Shown piece by piece: positions 16,832-24,013 of a stretch of DNA of 64,000 nucleotides; position 1 is the first letter of the stretch; every line of letters begins with the position of its first letter. The DNA is from an uncultured Methanospirillum sp. (GTDB lineage Archaea; Halobacteriota; Methanomicrobia; Methanomicrobiales; Methanospirillaceae), in the NCBI RefSeq assembly GCF_963668475.1, contig NZ_OY764544.1, positions 620,001-684,000 of the forward strand, given 5' to 3'. The translations under genes and the position numbers were made by a program. The notes below the pieces were generated by a model. It saw only the letters and a list, made by a program, of their open reading frames with translations. It was not told where the DNA came from and ran no database searches.

Positions 16832-16851
16832 TGCCATGCTATGACATGGCA
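16832..16851. promoter_or_regulatory. Dyad upstream of the aromatic operon TATA box
   Basis: TGCCATG (16832-16838) and CATGGCA (16845-16851) are perfect inverted repeats separated by six bases. The dyad ends 15 bases before the TATA element at 16866, a normal place for an archaeal activator or a repressor site that blocks factor binding. The cognate regulator is unknown. Confidence 0.45.
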
Positions 16852-16865
16852 TCATGTGAGAAATA

Positions 16866-16874
16866 TTTTTATAT
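16866..16874 (+). promoter_or_regulatory. TATA box of the aromatic amino acid operon leader
   Basis: TTTTTATAT, preceded by a purine-rich GAGAAA stretch that could serve as BRE, is the best archaeal TATA match in 16763-17114. Its centre lies about 26 bases before 16896-16897, so the predicted transcript would begin at or within a base or two of the ATG at 16897, giving a leaderless mRNA. Confidence 0.6.
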
Positions 16875-16896: not shown

Positions 16897-17079
16897 ATGA
16901 AGAGCGATCGGATCTCTGCAGGGCCTCAGGAAGCCTGTTTGAGCGGAGTATCCGACTGCCTTTCTACGATGTCATCCGGACTGTCAGAGAGTTTCTGCGC
17001 TCTCCTGTCAGCAGGTGTCTGGCATCATTCTTTTTGGCCGTTTAGCGGTTTTCGCTATTTTACGTATTTTTGGTACTAG
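16897..17079 (+). CDS. Putative aromatic-rich leader peptide of the aro operon
   Basis: A 60-codon frame from ATG 16897 to TAG 17077-17079. The first 40 residues are unremarkable, but the last 20 codons (17017-17076) encode W-H-H-S-F-W-P-F-S-G-F-R-Y-F-T-Y-F-W-Y preceded by Val: 3 Trp, 5 Phe and 3 Tyr, i.e. 11 of 20 aromatic, with the stop codon immediately after. The next gene begins a Phe/Tyr/Trp precursor pathway. The TATA box at 16866-16874 would place the mRNA start at this ATG. The frame is open back to a GTG at 16831, but that lies upstream of the promoter; an internal ATG at 16969 would give 36 residues. I interpret it as a leader peptide whose translation senses charged aromatic tRNAs. 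Conservation in relatives has not been checked. Confidence 0.7.
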   Translation: MKSDRISAGPQEACLSGVSDCLSTMSSGLSESFCALLSAGVWHHSFWPFSGFRYFTYFWY

Positions 17080-17111
17080 GCACGATCGCCTGTACCATAT
17101 CATGGTGATCG
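17072..17111 (+). promoter_or_regulatory. Two mutually exclusive hairpins controlling the first aro gene
   Basis: Hairpin 1: GGTAC (17072-17076) plus AGGC (17078-17081) pair with GCCT plus GTACC (17088-17096), nine pairs with one bulged T, which is the first base of the leader stop codon. Hairpin 2: ACCAT (17094-17098) pairs with ATGGT (17102-17106) and CGATC (17083-17087) with GATCG (17107-17111). Hairpin 2 buries GGTGAT (17104-17109), the Shine-Dalgarno sequence five bases before ATG 17115. Both use 17094-17096, so they exclude each other. A ribosome at the leader stop would cover hairpin 1 and favour hairpin 2 (off); one stalled at the earlier aromatic codons would leave hairpin 1 free to form (on). 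The CGATC-GATCG pairing could also form a pseudoknot with hairpin 1. Confidence 0.6.
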
Positions 17112-17114
17112 ATT

Positions 17115-17909
17115 ATGAGAGGTAAAGATATCAGACTGGAACGTATCATGAACCGCAACACGAGAAAGACGATTATTGTCCCGATGGACCATGGGGTATC
17201 CCTGGGTCCCATCGAAGGGCTGATCGAGTTCCCGGATGCGGTCAACGCGGTGGCAGAAGGTGGAGCGAATGCAGTACTCGGACATATCGGCCTGTCCCTC
17301 TATGGACACAGGCAGCGTGGGCATGACGTAGGACTAATCCTACACCTATCAGCCTCGACAGCCATCGGACCTGACCCTAACGAGAAGGTCCTCGTAAACT
17401 CGGTGACCAACGCGATCAAGATGGGTGCCGATGCTGTTTCTATCCACGTAAACATCGGAGCAGACTCTGAATCGCAGATGCTTGCCGACCTTGGACGTGT
17501 CTCGATCGAGTGCATGGAGTGGGGAATGCCACTCCTCGCAATGATGTACCCGAGGGGCAAGAACATCAAGGATGAGCATGCAGTTGAGCATGTCAGACTT
17601 GCAGCCAGGGTTGCCGCCGAGCTCGGTGTTGATATCGTCAAGACCAACTACACCGGAGATCCGGACACATTCCGCGAGGTGACACGCGGATGTCCGGTTC
17701 CGGTCGTGGTTGCAGGAGGATCCAAGACCGACGATATCATCACGCTCGAACTTATTGAGGGTGCAATGGAAGGAGGAGCAGCAGGGATATCAATCGGTAG
17801 AAATGCATTCCAGCATGCTGATCCTGCCCAGTTCGTACGAGCCTGCGCTCTTATTGTACATGAAGGAAAGAGTGCACATGAAGCACTTGAGATCCTGAAG
17901 GGTGTGTAA
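17115..17909 (+). CDS. aroA': 2-amino-3,7-dideoxy-D-threo-hept-6-ulosonate (ADTH) synthase
   Basis: A 264-residue class I aldolase-fold enzyme of the MJ0400 family, which condenses 6-deoxy-5-ketofructose 1-phosphate with aspartate semialdehyde to give ADTH, the first step of the methanogen route to dehydroquinate. Visible active-site elements are P-M-D-H-G (Asp near residue 24), M-M-Y-P-R-G (Tyr near 145) and the Schiff-base lysine in I-V-K-T-N-Y-T-G-D near 177. The phosphate site is I-G-R-N-A-F-Q-H. Among the two tandem copies this one looks closer to MJ0400 ([12 protein letters not shown] and M-E-G-G-A-A-G). GGTGAT at 17104-17109 is its ribosome binding site. It heads the aromatic operon behind the leader. 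Confidence 0.88.
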
Positions 17910-17910
17910 C

Positions 17911-18684
17911 ATGATCGGCAAGCAGATCCGGATGGAACGGATCATGGACAGGAACACAGGAAAATCCGTCATCATCCCGATGGATCACGGGATGACACTT
18001 GGCCAGATCGACGGGCTTCTGCAGATGAGTGAGACCATTGCAGCCGTTTCTGATGGTGGGGCCAACGCCATCATCCTGCACAAAGGTCTGGTCAAGGCAG
18101 GACACCGCCGTCATGGGCGGGATATCGGGCTCATCATCCACCTGTCAACCGGAACAAGCATGAATCCTGATCCAAACGACAAGGTCCTCACCTGCACGGT
18201 CGAAGAGGCGATCTCTCTTGGAGCCGACGCAGTCTCGATCCATATCAATCTCGGGGCACAGCAGGAGTCCAAGATGATTGAGGATGCAGGGATGGTTGTC
18301 CGCGACTGTAACAGGTGGGGTGTACCGCTCCTTGCCATGGTATACCCACGCGGAAACGGCATCAATCCAACTGATCCCAGGCACGTAGGGCATGCGGTAA
18401 GGGTTGCCGAAGAACTTGGGGCAGATATGGTCAAAACAAACTACACCGGTGATGTTGAAAGCTTCAGAAAGATCGTTGAGGCAAGTTCAATTCCAGTTTT
18501 TATCGCAGGCGGAGAGAAGGCAGGTGACCTTGAGACACTGAAGATCATCAGCGGTGCCACCCATATCGCAAATTGTGCGGGAGTATGTATGGGCAGGAAT
18601 GCCTTCCAGCGTGATGATACCGCGGTGTTTGTTAACAAGGTCTGCAAGGTTGTTCACGGGAAAGCAAAGCCGGAGGAACTCTGA
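17911..18684 (+). CDS. Second ADTH synthase / fructose-bisphosphate aldolase-family paralogue
   Basis: A 257-residue tandem paralogue of the preceding gene, starting one base after its stop at ATG 17911 (a GTG three codons earlier overlaps the previous gene). It keeps P-M-D-H-G, V-Y-P-R-G and the lysine motif M-V-K-T-N-Y-T-G-D, so it should be catalytically competent. The C-terminal phosphate region is altered (A-N-C-A-G-V-C-M-G-R-N-A-F-Q-R). In Methanocaldococcus two relatives divide the work, one making ADTH and another (MJ1585 type) producing deoxyketofructose phosphate from sugar phosphates. This copy could supply that precursor for its neighbour, or be a second ADTH synthase; sequence alone does not decide. 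Confidence 0.85.
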   Translation: MIGKQIRMERIMDRNTGKSVIIPMDHGMTLGQIDGLLQMSETIAAVSDGGANAIILHKGLVKAGHRRHGRDIGLIIHLSTGTSMNPDPNDKVLTCTVEEAISLGADAVSIHINLGAQQESKMIEDAGMVVRDCNRWGVPLLAMVYPRGNGINPTDPRHVGHAVRVAEELGADMVKTNYTGDVESFRKIVEASSIPVFIAGGEKAGDLETLKIISGATHIANCAGVCMGRNAFQRDDTAVFVNKVCKVVHGKAKPEEL

Positions 18685-19670
18685 TGAAACAGGTCCTCGT
18701 CGATGTCAGACCATGGAACAAAGAACTTGCAATCACAGCCCTTGAGTCTGGTGCAGACGGGATCGTGACAGATTCAGCGGCACAGGTCAAAGAACTCGGA
18801 CGAATAACCACAATCGCACCTGACGGAGACCTAATCCCGGGAAAGGATATCACAGAGATCACTATCAAGAGCACCGAGGATCAGGATCAGGCAATGGAGA
18901 CCGCAAAGCGGATGCCGGTGATCGTCCACACACCAGACTGGACTGTCATTCCTCTCGAAAACTTGGTTGCCGTAGCGGACTCAGTTATTGCGGTTGTGAA
19001 AAATGTGAATGAAGCAGAACTGGCACTTGGCATTCTGGAAAAAGGAGTTGCCGGAGTTCTGCTTCAGACTGAAGACCCGGCAGTGATTCGCGATGTAATC
19101 AAAGTTGTTCAGGGACACGGATGCATGCAGGACCTGCTTCCCCTGACGATTACCGCAATAACACCTGCCGGGATGGGAGACCGTGTCTGTGTTGATACCT
19201 GCTCTCTGATGACCGACGGTGAAGGGATGCTTGTTGGAAATACATCATCAGGGTTCTTCCTGGTCCATGCAGAGACGCTGGAAAATCCGTACGTGGCTCC
19301 TCGCCCGTTCAGGGTAAATGCAGGAGCAGTGCACGCGTACCTGAAGCTTGCTGACGGGAGAACTGCCTACCTTGCAGATCTCAAAGCCGGAGACCGGGTC
19401 ATGGTGAACGGAGCAAAAGGCTCCTGCCGTGAGGCAACCGTCGGAAGAGTGAAGATAGAGCAGCGTCCGCTCCTCCTCATAGAGGCAGAACACAAAGGAG
19501 CAGAGGTTACCATCATCCTTCAGAATGCAGAGACCATACGGCTTGCAAAACCTGACGGTTCTGCGATTTCTGTTGCAGCACTCAATCCAGGTGATGTCGT
19601 ACTCGGTGCCCTCGATACGGCGGGAAGGCACTTTGGGATGGCTGTCAACGAGACGATCCTGGAGAAGTGA
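18684..19670 (+). CDS. 3-dehydroquinate synthase II
   Basis: A 328-residue protein of the MJ1249 family, which uses NAD to deaminate and cyclise ADTH to 3-dehydroquinate, replacing bacterial AroB. Family features include the V-D-V-R-P-W-N-K-E start, G-M-G-D-R-V-C-V-D-T-C-S near 170, M-L-V-G-N-T-S-S-G-F-F-L-V-H-A-E near 191 and P-R-P-F-R-V-N-A-G-A-V-H-A-Y near 210. The length is typical. The start codon overlaps the stop of the previous gene by one base and its own stop overlaps the tyrA start by one base, so translation of these genes is probably coupled. Together with the ADTH synthase it forms the methanogen entry to the shikimate pathway. Confidence 0.93.
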   Translation: MKQVLVDVRPWNKELAITALESGADGIVTDSAAQVKELGRITTIAPDGDLIPGKDITEITIKSTEDQDQAMETAKRMPVIVHTPDWTVIPLENLVAVADSVIAVVKNVNEAELALGILEKGVAGVLLQTEDPAVIRDVIKVVQGHGCMQDLLPLTITAITPAGMGDRVCVDTCSLMTDGEGMLVGNTSSGFFLVHAETLENPYVAPRPFRVNAGAVHAYLKLADGRTAYLADLKAGDRVMVNGAKGSCREATVGRVKIEQRPLLLIEAEHKGAEVTIILQNAETIRLAKPDGSAISVAALNPGDVVLGALDTAGRHFGMAVNETILEK

Positions 19671-21321: not shown

Positions 21322-22622
21322 TGGATATGCACATCGGAAGGTGCGGCCCGGTTCATGCCAGGGTCAGGGCACCCCCATCAAAGAGTTACACGCACCGTGC
21401 TCTGATCATCGCCGCACTAGCAGAGGGGGTATCCTCGATTAAGGGGCAGCTTGACGCAGACGACACCAGAATTACTGCACGTGCACTTGCATCGCTCGGA
21501 GTCAGAATTGTGTGGGAGCAGGGTTTGATCACGGTGTATGGAACCGGAGGAAGGCTCCATGCACCGGGTTCAGCGATAGATATTGGTGATTCAGGGACAA
21601 GTATGCGACTGCTTACCGCTGTATGCCTGCTCGCAGACGGTCCCGTCACCATGACAGGAAGTGCACGAATGCAGGAGAGACCGATCGGCCCGCTGGTTGA
21701 TGCACTCAACAACGCCGGGGCAACCATCTCGTACCTGCAAACCCAGGGATGCCCCCCACTAATCATAGACGGTACGCTTGTAGGAGAAGATATCCAGGCA
21801 GACGGAAGCATCTCGAGCCAGTTCATCTCCTCGCTGCTGATAGCATCACCATATGCAGAAAAGGATGCCACAATCTCCCTTGTCGGCCCGGTTGTCTCGG
21901 AACCATACATCAGGATCACAACCGGCATGATGTCTCTCTTCGGGGTAACACCAGAACTGATAGGTCATAACCCTCTGTCCTGGAAGATCCATGCGGGTAT
22001 GGGATACAGGCCGGCATCATATACGGTCGAAGGTGACTACTCTTCTTCATCATACTGGTTCGCACTCGCGGCAGTAACAAGAGGCAGTGTCACAGTTGAA
22101 GGGCTTACTCAGGATTCAGACCAGGGAGACAGGCGTCTTCTCGATATCCTCAAGCAGATGGGATGCACGATCACCTGGAATCATGACGGTGAAACCGGTG
22201 ATTCTACGGTCACGTGCTCATGTAGCGGACCACTCTCCGGTGTTGATGTCGATATGGCAGACTGTCCTGACGTAGTCCAGTCTCTTGCTGTTGTCGCAGC
22301 TGTTGCAGAGACACCAACCCGGATCACCGGCATCCATCATCTTAGGGCAAAGGAGAGCGATCGGATCGCAGCAATTGTTAACGGTCTGAAGGTGCTCGGT
22401 ATCAGGTGTGAGGCAGATGATGATGAGATTGTCATCACACCCGGGAGACTCACTGGCGGGATAATTCATCCCGAACGCGACCACAGGACCGCGATGAGTT
22501 TTGCCATACTTGGAACGGCAATAGGTAATGTCACCATCCTTGATGCCGGATGCGTAACAAAATCATATCCTGACTTCTGGGAGGAGTTCAGATCAGTATG
22601 GAAGACCGCAGGATCGTGCTGA
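21321..22622 (+). CDS. aroA: 3-phosphoshikimate 1-carboxyvinyltransferase (EPSP synthase)
   Basis: A 433-residue enzyme joining phosphoenolpyruvate to shikimate 3-phosphate. Signature elements are K-S-Y-T-H-R-A near residue 22, D-S-G-T-S-M-R near 92, D-G-S-I-S-S-Q-F near 157, the catalytic D-C-P-D-V near 314, L-R-A-K-E-S-D-R near 340 and D-H-R-T-A-M near 388. I take ATG 21321 because it overlaps the pheA stop by one base; the open frame continues upstream but lies inside pheA. Another ATG at 21327 is possible. Its 3' end overlaps the kinase-dehydrogenase fusion by 25 bases. Confidence 0.94.
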   Translation: MDMHIGRCGPVHARVRAPPSKSYTHRALIIAALAEGVSSIKGQLDADDTRITARALASLGVRIVWEQGLITVYGTGGRLHAPGSAIDIGDSGTSMRLLTAVCLLADGPVTMTGSARMQERPIGPLVDALNNAGATISYLQTQGCPPLIIDGTLVGEDIQADGSISSQFISSLLIASPYAEKDATISLVGPVVSEPYIRITTGMMSLFGVTPELIGHNPLSWKIHAGMGYRPASYTVEGDYSSSSYWFALAAVTRGSVTVEGLTQDSDQGDRRLLDILKQMGCTITWNHDGETGDSTVTCSCSGPLSGVDVDMADCPDVVQSLAVVAAVAETPTRITGIHHLRAKESDRIAAIVNGLKVLGIRCEADDDEIVITPGRLTGGIIHPERDHRTAMSFAILGTAIGNVTILDAGCVTKSYPDFWEEFRSVWKTAGSC

Positions 22623-24013
22623 TAGGGTATCGTGGAACGGGAAAGAGCAGCATCGGACGCAACATTGCTGCAACACTCAAGTTTGACCATATCGATATCG
22701 ATACCCTGATCGAGGAGACAGAAGACAGAACCATCCCTGAGATCTTTGCAACCAGTGGAGACAATGGTGGTGAAGAAGAATTTCGTGCAATTGAATCCCG
22801 AATCATAGACAGGCTACCCGATACACCTGTCGTGATCAGTACTGGCGGCGGTGCTGTGCTCAGGCAGGAGAATATCAGGGCTCTCAGGAGAAAGAGTCAG
22901 GTCATCCTGCTCACGAGCAGCGAGGAGATGATTGCGAAGAGGATTGCTGGAACCTCCCGCCCTTCTCTTACAGGACTATCGCTGGAAGAGGAGATCCATA
23001 CAACCCTTGAAGAGCGGCAGCCATTCTACCGGGCAGCCGCAGATCTCGTTTATGACTCGACCGGTAAAACGCCAAAGCAGGCAGCCTCTGAGATCCTGCA
23101 GATAATAAGGCCGGGTAAGCATTTTTCAGATGAGATCAATGCCCGCCAGAAACTCGTAAACTGGGTACTCTCCACTCCGATTCCGGCTGCAGTTCACAAA
23201 CCACTTCTGGCTACAGTATCTGATCCTACGACCAGGTTGTATGGAATCCTGGGAAATCCCTGTATGCACAGCCTCTCTCCTCCCATCTGGAACAGGCTCT
23301 TTCAGGAGCTAAATATTCCTGCCCGTTACACCTGGTTTGAATGCCCGGATCCGGCACGATTGATCCTTGCAGCAGAGAAGGCAGGAGTCAGGGGACTTAG
23401 TGTTACTATCCCGCACAAAGAGACGGTTATGCCGCTCCTGGATGAGATAAAGCACGATGCAACTGTCATTGGAAAGGTAAATACAATCCTCCTGCTTGGT
23501 GGGAAGCGATATGGATATAACACGGACTGGAAAGGCATTTACCGTCCGCTCGAAGGCGTGGATGGTGATGTTGCTGTCATTCTCGGGGCAGGAGGTGCTG
23601 CAGCCTCGGCCGTATATGCAGCCTCCATGCGGGGATTTACTCCAGTCATTCTCAACCGAACAGTCGAACGAGCGCTGGAGATGGGAAAACACTTTGGTGT
23701 TGAGACCGGGGCAATCAGTGACTTTACAAGGTATCATCCGGATCTTGTTATCAATGCTACATCGGTAGGAATGAAATCACACGGATCTGCATCGAATATG
23801 ACACCCGTACCTGTGTCATCGCTTACACCTGACATGCATGTGTTTGACCTGGTGTATACTCCTGCTGAGACACCTCTTCTGCAGGGAGCACTAGAGAAAG
23901 GATGCAGCATCATCCCGGGAACTGAGATGTTTATTCACCAGTTGATTGAGCAGTTTAAAGTGCTGACAGGGATCGATGTCCCGGCAGACACCGTGCGGAG
24001 ATGGTTACTCTGA
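22598..24013 (+). CDS. aroK-aroE: Fused shikimate kinase - shikimate dehydrogenase
   Basis: A 471-residue bifunctional protein. Residues 1-170 are a bacterial-type (NMP kinase fold) shikimate kinase: Walker A G-Y-R-G-T-G-K-S, shikimate-binding E-E-F-R-A-I-E, G-G-G-A-V near 87, lid S-R-P-S-L near 125, and E-R-Q-P-F-Y-R-A-A-A-D. Residues 205-471 are shikimate dehydrogenase: L-Y-G-I-L-G-N-P-C-M-H-S-L-S-P, catalytic lysine in V-T-I-P-H-K-E near 276, V-N-T-I, Y-N-T-D, NADP loop G-A-G-G-A-A-A-S-A near 338, and a late P-G-T-E-M-F-I-H-Q. Most archaea use an unrelated GHMP-fold shikimate kinase, so the kinase half was probably acquired. The fusion joins non-consecutive domains in reverse reaction order. 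All catalytic residues that I can recognise are present in both halves. Confidence 0.93.
   Translation: MEDRRIVLIGYRGTGKSSIGRNIAATLKFDHIDIDTLIEETEDRTIPEIFATSGDNGGEEEFRAIESRIIDRLPDTPVVISTGGGAVLRQENIRALRRKSQVILLTSSEEMIAKRIAGTSRPSLTGLSLEEEIHTTLEERQPFYRAAADLVYDSTGKTPKQAASEILQIIRPGKHFSDEINARQKLVNWVLSTPIPAAVHKPLLATVSDPTTRLYGILGNPCMHSLSPPIWNRLFQELNIPARYTWFECPDPARLILAAEKAGVRGLSVTIPHKETVMPLLDEIKHDATVIGKVNTILLLGGKRYGYNTDWKGIYRPLEGVDGDVAVILGAGGAAASAVYAASMRGFTPVILNRTVERALEMGKHFGVETGAISDFTRYHPDLVINATSVGMKSHGSASNMTPVPVSSLTPDMHVFDLVYTPAETPLLQGALEKGCSIIPGTEMFIHQLIEQFKVLTGIDVPADTVRRWLL

What the first reader, a model, noticed from the sequence alone, without database searches (positions are those of the whole stretch)
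16897..17079. Aromatic-rich leader peptide in front of an archaeal aromatic amino acid operon
A 60-codon frame opens exactly where a TATA box (16866-16874) predicts a leaderless mRNA to begin, and its last 20 codons contain 3 Trp, 5 Phe and 3 Tyr codons, ending 35 bases before the first gene for aromatic amino acid synthesis. Random sequence would hardly give 11 aromatic codons of 20, placed directly before the stop, in this context. It resembles bacterial pheL/trpL leaders, which sense charged tRNA through ribosome stalling. To my knowledge leader-peptide attenuation has not been established in archaea, so this would be a new regulatory system.
Basis: partly seen in the sequence, partly recalled or inferred. 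Interest (0 to 1): 0.95.

Follow-up and report, generated by a model that had tools for sequence, protein, structure and literature searches.

The report
Archaeal aromatic-sensing leader peptide attenuator
In all six sampled families of one order of methane-making archaea, the genes for making phenylalanine and tyrosine are preceded by a short reading frame packed with phenylalanine, tyrosine and tryptophan codons just before its stop, which likely lets the ribosome sense these amino acids and would switch the genes on or off, a kind of control so far described in bacteria.

Summary
The 60-codon frame (16897-17079; 3 Trp, 5 Phe, 3 Tyr in its last 20 codons) ends 35 nt before an ADTH-synthase gene that opens a shikimate-Phe-Tyr operon. 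All 124 Methanomicrobiales loci examined with that gene have such a frame (4 or more aromatic codons in the last 10 in 119); none of 20 homologous loci outside the order has. In 96 loci the frame can be fixed without looking at aromatic content, and the result holds. The aromatic codons crowd against the stop. Sequence complementary to the first gene's Shine-Dalgarno (SD) box sits at the leader stop, and in Methanospirillum two mutually exclusive hairpins, one made by the last codons and stop, one covering the SD box, are kept with compensatory changes. I conclude: most likely ribosome-mediated attenuation, with translational output here, and no archaeal precedent in the listings searched. Shown: frame, conservation, hairpin potential. 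Inferred: tRNA sensing, stalling, direction. Against: no clear synonymous excess; SD boxes not more hidden overall than in other genes; no common fold across genera; no intrinsic terminator.

The parts
16832..16851 (+). perfect inverted repeat TGCCATG-CTATGA-CATGGCA directly upstream of the promoter, operator-like
   Evidence: only exact match of its pattern in the 3.93-Mb genome, the other places having 2 mismatches; related repeats are visible by eye at the same place in L002-L012
16866..16874 (+). TATA-like box, predicted promoter of a leaderless mRNA
   Evidence: sequence; spacing kept in relatives
16897..17079 (+). leader ORF of 60 codons, predicted leaderless ATG start, stop TAG at 17077-17079
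   Evidence: conserved frame in 124 Methanomicrobiales loci
17017..17076 (+). aromatic tail of the leader (last 20 codons: 3 W, 5 F, 3 Y), the predicted sensor
17071..17081 (+). segment 1: 5' arm of hairpin A (TGGTACTAGGC), formed by the last Trp and Tyr codons and the stop
   Evidence: folds; covariation in 10 distinct Methanospirillum sequences
17088..17097 (+). 3' arm of hairpin A (GCCTGTACCA)
17084..17090 (+). segment 2: 5' arm of hairpin B (GATCGCC); overlaps the 3' arm of A, so A and B exclude each other
   Evidence: SD-complementary sequence located at the stop in 87 loci
17104..17110 (+). segment 3: 3' arm of hairpin B = Shine-Dalgarno box GGTGATC of the ADTH-synthase gene
   Evidence: sequence
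17115..17909 (+). ADTH synthase (2-amino-3,7-dideoxy-D-threo-hept-6-ulosonate synthase), first gene of the operon
   Evidence: TIGR01949 above cut-off
17911..18684 (+). second ADTH-synthase paralogue
   Evidence: TIGR01949 above cut-off
18684..19670 (+). 3-dehydroquinate synthase II
   Evidence: PF01959, NF002627
19667..20494 (+). prephenate dehydrogenase (Tyr branch)
   Evidence: PF02153, PF20463
20491..21321 (+). prephenate dehydratase with ACT domain (Phe branch)
   Evidence: PF00800, PF01842
21228..22622 (+). EPSP synthase (ORF as listed; the true start is probably further in)
   Evidence: TIGR01356
22598..24013 (+). shikimate kinase-shikimate dehydrogenase fusion
   Evidence: PF01202, PF08501
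24001..25014 (+). chorismate synthase
   Evidence: TIGR00033

Best explanation
This is a conserved leader ORF with a Phe/Tyr/Trp-rich end, placed directly before the shikimate-Phe-Tyr operon, which likely works as a ribosome-mediated attenuator: ribosomes would slow on the tail when charged aromatic tRNA is scarce and would thereby keep the first gene's ribosome-binding site open. Shown: the ORF, its conservation, the placement of aromatic codons at the stop, an SD-complementary arm at the leader stop, and in this genus two mutually exclusive potential hairpins (A: last codons plus stop with 17088-17097; B: 17084-17090 with the SD box 17104-17110). Inferred: a ribosome waiting on upstream aromatic codons leaves hairpin A intact, and one waiting on the very last codon physically opens B; in both cases the SD box is free. 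A ribosome over codons -3 and -2 breaks A and lets B close the SD box. With plentiful aromatic amino acids ribosomes do not dwell on the tail and B would close the SD box more often. Likelihoods: functional conserved leader 0.97; sensing of aromatic tRNA 0.8; SD hairpin as the output in this genus 0.5.
For: Conservation: frame open over 43 codons in 87 of 87 distinct loci (other frames 1 and 9), mean 8.47 aromatic codons in the last 20 against 4.26 and 2.13 in the other frames. Without choosing by aromatic content: in 96 loci where an upstream ORF1 fixes the frame (+1 to it), that frame has 4-15 aromatic codons in its last 20 (mean 7.98), 4 or more in the last 10 in 95 of 96, and runs a median of 42 codons on from ORF1 against 17 and 19 for the other frames. 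Together 119 of 124 loci have 4 or more in the last 10 (exceptions L080, L180-L183), against 0 of 20 loci outside the order by the most aromatic frame (maximum 3). Specificity: all 37 of 944 ORF starts with 9 or more aromatic codons upstream are this gene; the three loci with only a 51-53% paralogue have no such frame (L120, L129, L130: 2-4 aromatic in 20); none was seen before trpE (23 loci), hisG (30) or ilvB (29). Position: in 116 of 119 distinct tails an aromatic codon lies within the last 3, and density is 0.47-0.82 at codons -1 to -9, 0.03 at -26. Output: duplex energy with the SD region is strongest in the 18-nt window starting 4 nt before the stop (-9.8 against -5.1 to -7.3 kcal/mol in windows further upstream, mean z -0.77); masking 12 nt from the stop raises predicted SD accessibility from 0.37 to 0.58 in 85 leaders but only 0.41 to 0.44 in 377 control starts (p = 1.4e-9). 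Switch: hairpin A 98% and B 98.6% of cells paired, 3 and 2 pairs with changes on both sides, covariation scores above all 500 shuffles and all slid versions. Columns 12, 23 and 39 change together (A/U/A to G/C/G), column 12 being the third base of the stop codon (TGA against TAG). In L001 (this genome) SD accessibility is about 0.4-0.55 with the ribosome further upstream, 0.01 at codons -3/-2 and 0.57 at -1/stop. Independent triple: eight loci of other families (L117, L119, L186, L187, L194-L197) can pair UUCUGGU of the last codons with ACCAGAA or a variant of it, which otherwise joins a long hairpin with UCUGGUGCAG or a variant.
Against: No clear synonymous excess in the tail. SD boxes behind leaders are not more occluded overall than those of other genes (p = 0.12; p = 0.06), and part of the dip is base composition (z only -0.77). 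In 10 of the 11 Methanospirillum sequences folded, hairpin A, not B, is the predicted ground state; with the 5' side blocked B forms in 9 of 11, so the off state depends on ribosomes over codons -3/-2, and L004 does not follow the pattern. The Methanospirillum sequences fall into two main groups, so few independent changes stand behind the covariation; the number of doubly changed pairs alone is not above shuffles (166 and 72 of 500 reach it). Elsewhere no hairpin A was evident, and alignment folding found no shared structure in 12 Methanolinea-type loci and only 5 and 4 pairs in 16 Methanoregula-type and 19 Methanoculleus-type loci. There the SD box is predicted to open mainly with a ribosome near the stop, so the direction of the response is less certain. 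In the eight loci with the other triple the leader stop is 122-230 nt from the gene. In L180-L183 the main aromatic cluster lies 14-24 codons before the stop. The preference for U-ending codons, strong across loci, is slight in this genome. No transcript, ribosome-profiling or expression data were available.
Confidence: 0.62

Rival explanations
1. Transcription-level attenuation: the U-rich tail, or the hairpin after it, would be a termination signal (archaeal RNA polymerase stops at U-tracts with aCPSF1/FttA, recalled), masked while a ribosome waits on the aromatic codons and exposed once it has left.
For: Aromatic codons are U-rich, and U-ending synonyms are preferred across loci; in eight loci of other families a long hairpin, followed in several by a short U-run, lies 122 nt or more before the gene and not at its SD box.
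Against: The longest T-run in the tail is only 3-4 in 45 of 87 loci; the SD-complementary arm at the stop needs another explanation; no T-run of three or more lies between leader stop and gene in the window.
Confidence: 0.14
2. Plain translational coupling: the leader is translated to open the SD hairpin and feed ribosomes to the first gene, without sensing aromatic amino acids.
For: A ribosome at the leader stop is predicted to free the SD box; the leader stop is 20-79 nt from the gene in 113 of 124 loci (93 of the 96 with ORF1, 20 of the other 28).
Against: It does not explain why the residues are aromatic in a frame before an aromatic operon and at no unrelated start of the sample at that density.
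Confidence: 0.12
3. The leader encodes a functional aromatic-rich microprotein acting in trans (a membrane peptide or a regulator of the pathway).
For: Long conserved open frame; a small N-terminal motif (V-x-V-F-S-P-V-x-V-F-I) in many relatives.
Against: Between genera mainly composition and place are kept; the motif is absent in Methanospirillum; no Pfam or NCBIfam match; always in cis before the same gene in this sample.
Confidence: 0.06
4. Chance or non-coding T-rich sequence (a promoter or binding site) read as a frame.
For: The tail is 42% T on average.
Against: Frame open in 87 of 87 loci against 1 and 9 for the other frames; aromatic excess also when the frame is fixed by ORF1; specific to one gene among 944 starts.
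Confidence: 0.01

Closest known systems
Bacterial ribosome-mediated attenuators trpL/pheL (Enterobacteriaceae, recalled; classical attenuators also in Actinobacteria, PMC1262725)
   Same: Short leader ORF, runs of end-product codons near its stop, biosynthetic operon behind it, complementary triple of RNA segments with alternative hairpins (PMC1262725 describes such triples for trp; passages read).
   Different: Archaeal and predicted leaderless; three amino acids would be sensed together; no intrinsic terminator, the SD box being the likely target in the window; end-product codons extend to the last codon, so segment 1 lies inside the codons and stop.
Translational attenuators of ermC/cat type (recalled)
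   Same: Leader followed at its stop by a hairpin that covers the next gene's SD box; a ribosome held near the leader end is predicted to open it.
   Different: Would respond to charged tRNA, not to an antibiotic.
LEU element upstream of leuA in Actinobacteria (PMC1262725, passages read)
   Same: Leucine-codon run of a leader pairs with the SD box of leuA; in L023, L025, L049, L058 the last leader codons (CTCCC) are likewise predicted to pair with the SD box.
   Different: No pseudoknot was sought here; in this window the SD-pairing arm lies after the stop.
Known archaeal control of aromatic synthesis: TrpY (Methanothermobacter) and Tar/TK0271 (Thermococcus), PMC6737238
   Same: Control of aromatic amino acid genes in archaea; an operator-like repeat also exists here.
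   Different: Both are DNA-binding proteins; the passages seen mention no leader peptide.

Membership tests
Ribosome-mediated attenuation (trpL/pheL type) | short ORF upstream of a biosynthetic operon, enriched in codons of the end product near its stop | tested here: met
Ribosome-mediated attenuation (trpL/pheL type) | mutually exclusive RNA hairpins, one including the leader's last codons or stop | tested here: met
   met in Methanospirillum, the genus of the window, and by folding only in eight loci of other families; not evident in the Methanoregula-, Methanolinea- and Methanoculleus-type sets
Ribosome-mediated attenuation (trpL/pheL type) | intrinsic terminator (hairpin plus U-run) between leader and gene | tested here: not met
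   no U-run in 17080-17114; so it is not filed as a trpL/pheL-type transcription attenuator
Ribosome-mediated attenuation (trpL/pheL type) | expression rises when the cognate aminoacyl-tRNA is limiting | not testable with these tools
   needs expression data
Translational attenuation (ermC/cat type) | SD box of the next gene sequestered by an arm at the end of the leader, opened by a ribosome there | tested here: inconclusive
   for: (gain on masking), by sequence and folding only; against: overall SD occlusion not above controls and A, not B, is the ground state in 10 of 11 Methanospirillum folds
Translational attenuation (ermC/cat type) | drug-induced ribosome arrest in the leader | not tested
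   no reason to expect a drug here
T-box or other catalogued regulatory RNA | match to an Rfam family | tested here: not met
   0 matches in the 64-kb window at gathering scores
LEU element | end-product codon run paired with the SD box | tested here: not met
   in the window the SD-pairing arm 17084-17090 lies after the stop; an analogous pairing is seen only in L023, L025, L049, L058

The most novel reading that the evidence does not exclude
An order of archaea has its own amino-acid-sensing leader-peptide attenuation on predicted leaderless mRNAs, built separately from the bacterial systems. In most loci sampled a second, overlapping 14-26-codon ORF begins at the mRNA's first AUG and shares its DNA with the sensor ORF in the +1 frame, and would gate entry of ribosomes into the sensor by internal GTG initiation or a +1 frameshift.
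Probability: 0.3. Interest if true: 0.95.

Novelty: new variant of a known kind. Interest (0 to 1): 0.88.

Why it matters
[quoted passage not shown] Six literature searches here paired 'leader peptide' with archaea, methanogens or Methanospirillum (two of the listings were capped); I saw no archaeal leader-peptide attenuator among the titles and abstracts listed. A ribosome-based sensor fixed throughout Methanomicrobiales would show that end-product sensing by translation arose in archaea too, on leaderless messages, and that the first AUG of a leaderless mRNA can carry regulatory ORFs. The prediction is base-precise and testable by reporters and ribosome profiling.

Tried and rejected
A general claim that the SD box is hidden more than in other genes was tested and dropped (p = 0.12, 66 leaders against 179 controls; p = 0.06, 85 against 377); only the specific effect of the 12 nt at the stop survives. 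Synonymous bias as coding evidence was tested and not clearly found. U-ending codons as an adaptation of this genome: strong across loci but slight in the window (leader TTT 5 of 6 and TAT 2 of 3; operon genes TTT 31 of 59 and TAT 17 of 43), so it is not used for the window. A frameshift inside the ORF1/ORF2 overlap was considered: both frames appear constrained across the 24-nt core, so I prefer dual coding; a shift at the ORF1 stop is not excluded. Leaders before trpE, hisG and ilvB were looked for and not seen: at most 2 W, 3 H and 7 I+L+V in the last 15 codons of any frame ending 5-250 nt upstream, and only two W-rich frames, one inside the gene (L132) and one 546 nt away (L153). Those genes may not be first in their operons and their starts were guessed, so this is a weak negative; L261, a further ilvB locus, was not examined.

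Rows dropped before counts: of 110 loci (30; the best 80 of 260 found), duplicates and L098 (another gene part) were removed, leaving 87 distinct. L120, L129 and L130 (51-53% paralogue only) were removed from the later 40, leaving 124 loci, several of them the same species sampled twice (119 distinct tails). In one search the tails of L194 and L195 were taken from a wrong frame (seen); their true tails end FWFRQ, which does not change the count of 116 of 119. One search's own count (120 of 124) used the most aromatic frame of any kind and picked a wrong frame for L080; one search mends it to 119 and mends the distances. The leader frame was chosen as the most aromatic frame ending 20-95 nt upstream; others (same choice for all starts; frame fixed by ORF1) are the controls. 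Control starts are mechanical ORFs, some of them not genes, and come from related genomes. One search's pattern failed and its printed sequences were read by eye; one search stopped with an error and was redone; one search included one useless 8-base reference; one search aligned some loci in the wrong orientation and was replaced. The search of the protein database, structure prediction, fold searches and searches of phage, plasmid and E. coli records were not used.

Full report
What is there. The frame 16897-17079 encodes MKSDRISAGPQEACLSGVSDCLSTMSSGLSESFCALLSAGVWHHSFWPFSGFRYFTYFWY, begins about 27 nt after the centre of a TATA-like box, and ends 35 nt before the ATG of an ADTH-synthase gene. 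Behind it lie a second ADTH-synthase paralogue, dehydroquinate synthase II, prephenate dehydrogenase, prephenate dehydratase, EPSP synthase, a shikimate kinase-dehydrogenase fusion and chorismate synthase: genes of the pathway to chorismate, Phe and Tyr, without trp genes. The gene before it is the aMBF1 factor (TIGR00270). Rfam finds nothing in the window at gathering scores, and the leader has no Pfam or NCBIfam match.

Relatives. A search of 61 genomes (30 loci fetched) and one of a genome collection (the best 80 of 260 kept) gave 110 loci; 87 distinct upstream regions remained after removing duplicates and L098. In all 87 a frame with 4-15 aromatic codons in its last 20 ends upstream of the gene. 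It is open for at least 43 codons in 87 of 87; the two other frames are open in 1 and 9. Aromatic codons in the last 20 average 8.47, against 4.26 and 2.13 in the other frames and 3.45 after shuffling. Forty more loci from genomes of all six families of the order that were sampled gave 37 with the true ADTH-synthase gene, all with such a frame; three with only a 51-53% paralogue had none.

A count without choosing. In 96 of the 124 loci the frame can be fixed by the conserved ORF1 described below, without looking at aromatic content. In the +1 frame to ORF1 the last 20 codons hold 4-15 aromatic codons (mean 7.98), and 95 of 96 have four or more in the last ten (L080 has three). That frame runs a median of 42 codons beyond ORF1, against 17 and 19 for the others. 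Of the 28 loci without ORF1, 24 have four or more in the last ten; in L180-L183 the main cluster lies 14-24 codons before the stop. So 119 of 124 in all. Twenty loci from outside the order have at most three in any frame and no leader. The leader is thus, in this sample, a feature of Methanomicrobiales.

Specificity. With the most-aromatic-frame rule applied to 944 ORF starts in the window and loci, all 37 starts with nine or more aromatic codons are at ADTH synthase; the highest unrelated starts have eight (2 of 944). Upstream regions of trpE (23 loci), hisG (30) and ilvB (29) show no leader rich in the matching residue, although those genes may not be first in their operons.

Form of conservation. 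Single-change codons in the tail of 25 close pairs are 20 synonymous and 51 nonsynonymous (0.28; 0.20 expected); another frame shows a similar excess, so this is no evidence for coding. Codons that are aromatic in at least one member of a pair and have changed stay aromatic in 16 of 40 cases, against 10 of 50 and 2 of 25 in the other frames. Between genera the residues differ while the aromatic density stays: 0.47-0.82 of codons at -1 to -9 are aromatic, and 116 of 119 distinct tails have an aromatic codon within the last three. Across loci the synonyms are unusual: TTT 273 of 376 and TAT 256 of 297 in tails, against 36 of 257 and 35 of 213 in the ADTH-synthase genes of the same loci. In this genome the contrast is slight (operon genes TTT 31 of 59, TAT 17 of 43). 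That U-ending codons are wobble-read in archaea is recalled, not tested.

RNA around the leader stop. The sequence most complementary to the SD region of the first gene lies at the leader stop: mean duplex energy -9.8 kcal/mol for the window starting 4 nt before the stop, against -5.1 to -7.3 further upstream; part of this is composition (mean z -0.77). Masking the 12 nt from the stop, as a ribosome there would, raises predicted SD accessibility from 0.37 to 0.58 in 85 leaders and from 0.41 to 0.44 in 377 control starts (p = 1.4e-9). Overall SD occlusion is not above that of other genes (p = 0.12, p = 0.06). The SD consensus used is recalled.

The switch in this genus. In Methanospirillum hairpin A (17071-17081 with 17088-17097 here) is made by the last Trp and Tyr codons, the stop and the following bases; hairpin B (17084-17090 with 17104-17110) covers the SD box. 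They share bases and exclude each other. On ten distinct sequences A pairs in 98% and B in 98.6% of cells, with three and two pairs changed on both sides, and covariation scores above all shuffles and slid versions; the number of doubly changed pairs alone is not unusual (166 and 72 of 500 shuffles reach it). The sequences fall into two main groups, so few independent events stand behind these counts. In the folds A is the ground state in 10 of 11 sequences, and B forms in 9 of 11 when the 5' side is blocked. With a ribosome modelled codon by codon, the SD box of this genome is about half open when the ribosome is further upstream, closed (0.01) with codons -3 or -2 in the A site, and open (0.57) at the last codon or the stop. 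Most of the 12 Methanospirillum loci broadly follow this; L004 does not.

Other lineages. Methanoculleus-type loci keep the SD box mostly closed until a ribosome nears the stop, and Methanoregula-type loci are intermediate. In L023, L025, L049 and L058 the SD-pairing arm lies inside the last codons themselves. In eight loci of other families (L117, L119, L186, L187, L194-L197) the leader stop is 122-230 nt from the gene; there UUCUGGU of the last codons can pair with ACCAGAA or a variant, which otherwise joins a long hairpin. Such a complementary triple is the form of classical trp attenuators (PMC1262725, passages read). RNAalifold gave no structure for 12 Methanolinea-type loci, short ones for the Methanoregula and Methanoculleus sets (5 and 4 pairs), and longer ones for two sets of only four sequences, so a common fold is not claimed.

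How it most likely works. The shown parts fit a ribosome-based sensor: end-product codons at the stop, and RNA alternatives whose choice depends on where a ribosome stands. I infer that shortage of charged aromatic tRNA holds ribosomes on the tail, either upstream (A intact) or on the last codon (B opened), leaving the SD box free, and that normal flow favours closure by B. The direction of the response, the need for translation and the tRNA signal are untested. A transcriptional output is the main rival, above all for the lineage with the distant hairpin.

An unexplained layer. In 96 of 124 loci the first ATG opens a 14-26-codon ORF1 (typically MQGECFFAGECFYLx), in 86 of 96 with a TATA-like box 23-30 nt before it; the aromatic ORF2 is +1 to it in all 96, with ATG, GTG or TTG in the ORF2 frame inside ORF1 in at least 92. 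Over its 24-nt core (49 distinct sequences) the base that changes both proteins is almost invariant (mean entropy 0.05) while the other two positions vary equally (0.63, 0.61), and the ORF1 stop follows the core by one or two codons in 86 of 96: this looks like dual coding. Twenty-eight loci have no ORF1; in 10 of 12 Methanospirillum loci, L020 and L128 an in-frame ATG with a TATA-like box opens the aromatic ORF directly.

Literature. Eight searches were run in an open-access library, several with capped listings, and five papers were opened for passages only (PMC11456600; PMC12482152; PMC8448881; PMC1262725; PMC6737238). [quoted passage not shown] the passages of PMC6737238 name the proteins TrpY and Tar for archaeal aromatic genes. 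I saw no archaeal leader-peptide attenuator in the titles and abstracts listed; most subscription papers are not in that library.

Noticed in passing
16832-16851: Inverted repeat TGCCATGCTATGACATGGCA just upstream of the TATA box; the only exact match of its pattern in the genome, likely an operator for this operon.
   Followed up: partly
L156, L159, L164, L166, L172, upstream of ADTH-synthase homologues: Outside the order, several homologues carry an inverted repeat like GTGCTACTATGTCACATNGTAACAC near the start (by eye), and some Methanoregula-type loci (for example L083, L104, L108) carry GTGCTACACTGTAGCAC: perhaps an older protein-based control of the same gene.
   Followed up: no
96 of 124 loci, for example L089, L074, L017: Overlapping ORF1 (MQGECFFAGECFYLx) at the first AUG, sharing DNA with the aromatic ORF in the +1 frame, with signs of dual coding and hexapeptide-like repeats (ECFFAR) in some.
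   Followed up: partly
L117, L119, L186, L187, L194-L197: Long hairpin (CUGCACC/GGUGCAG and variants) after the leader stop, followed in several by a short U-run, with the gene 122-230 nt away.
   Followed up: partly
17115-18684: Two adjacent genes both pass the ADTH-synthase equivalog cut-off; G012, G028 and G056 (two of them incomplete genomes) had only matches of about 51-53% or lower.
   Followed up: no
22598-24013: Shikimate kinase of the Pfam SKI type fused to shikimate dehydrogenase.
   Followed up: no
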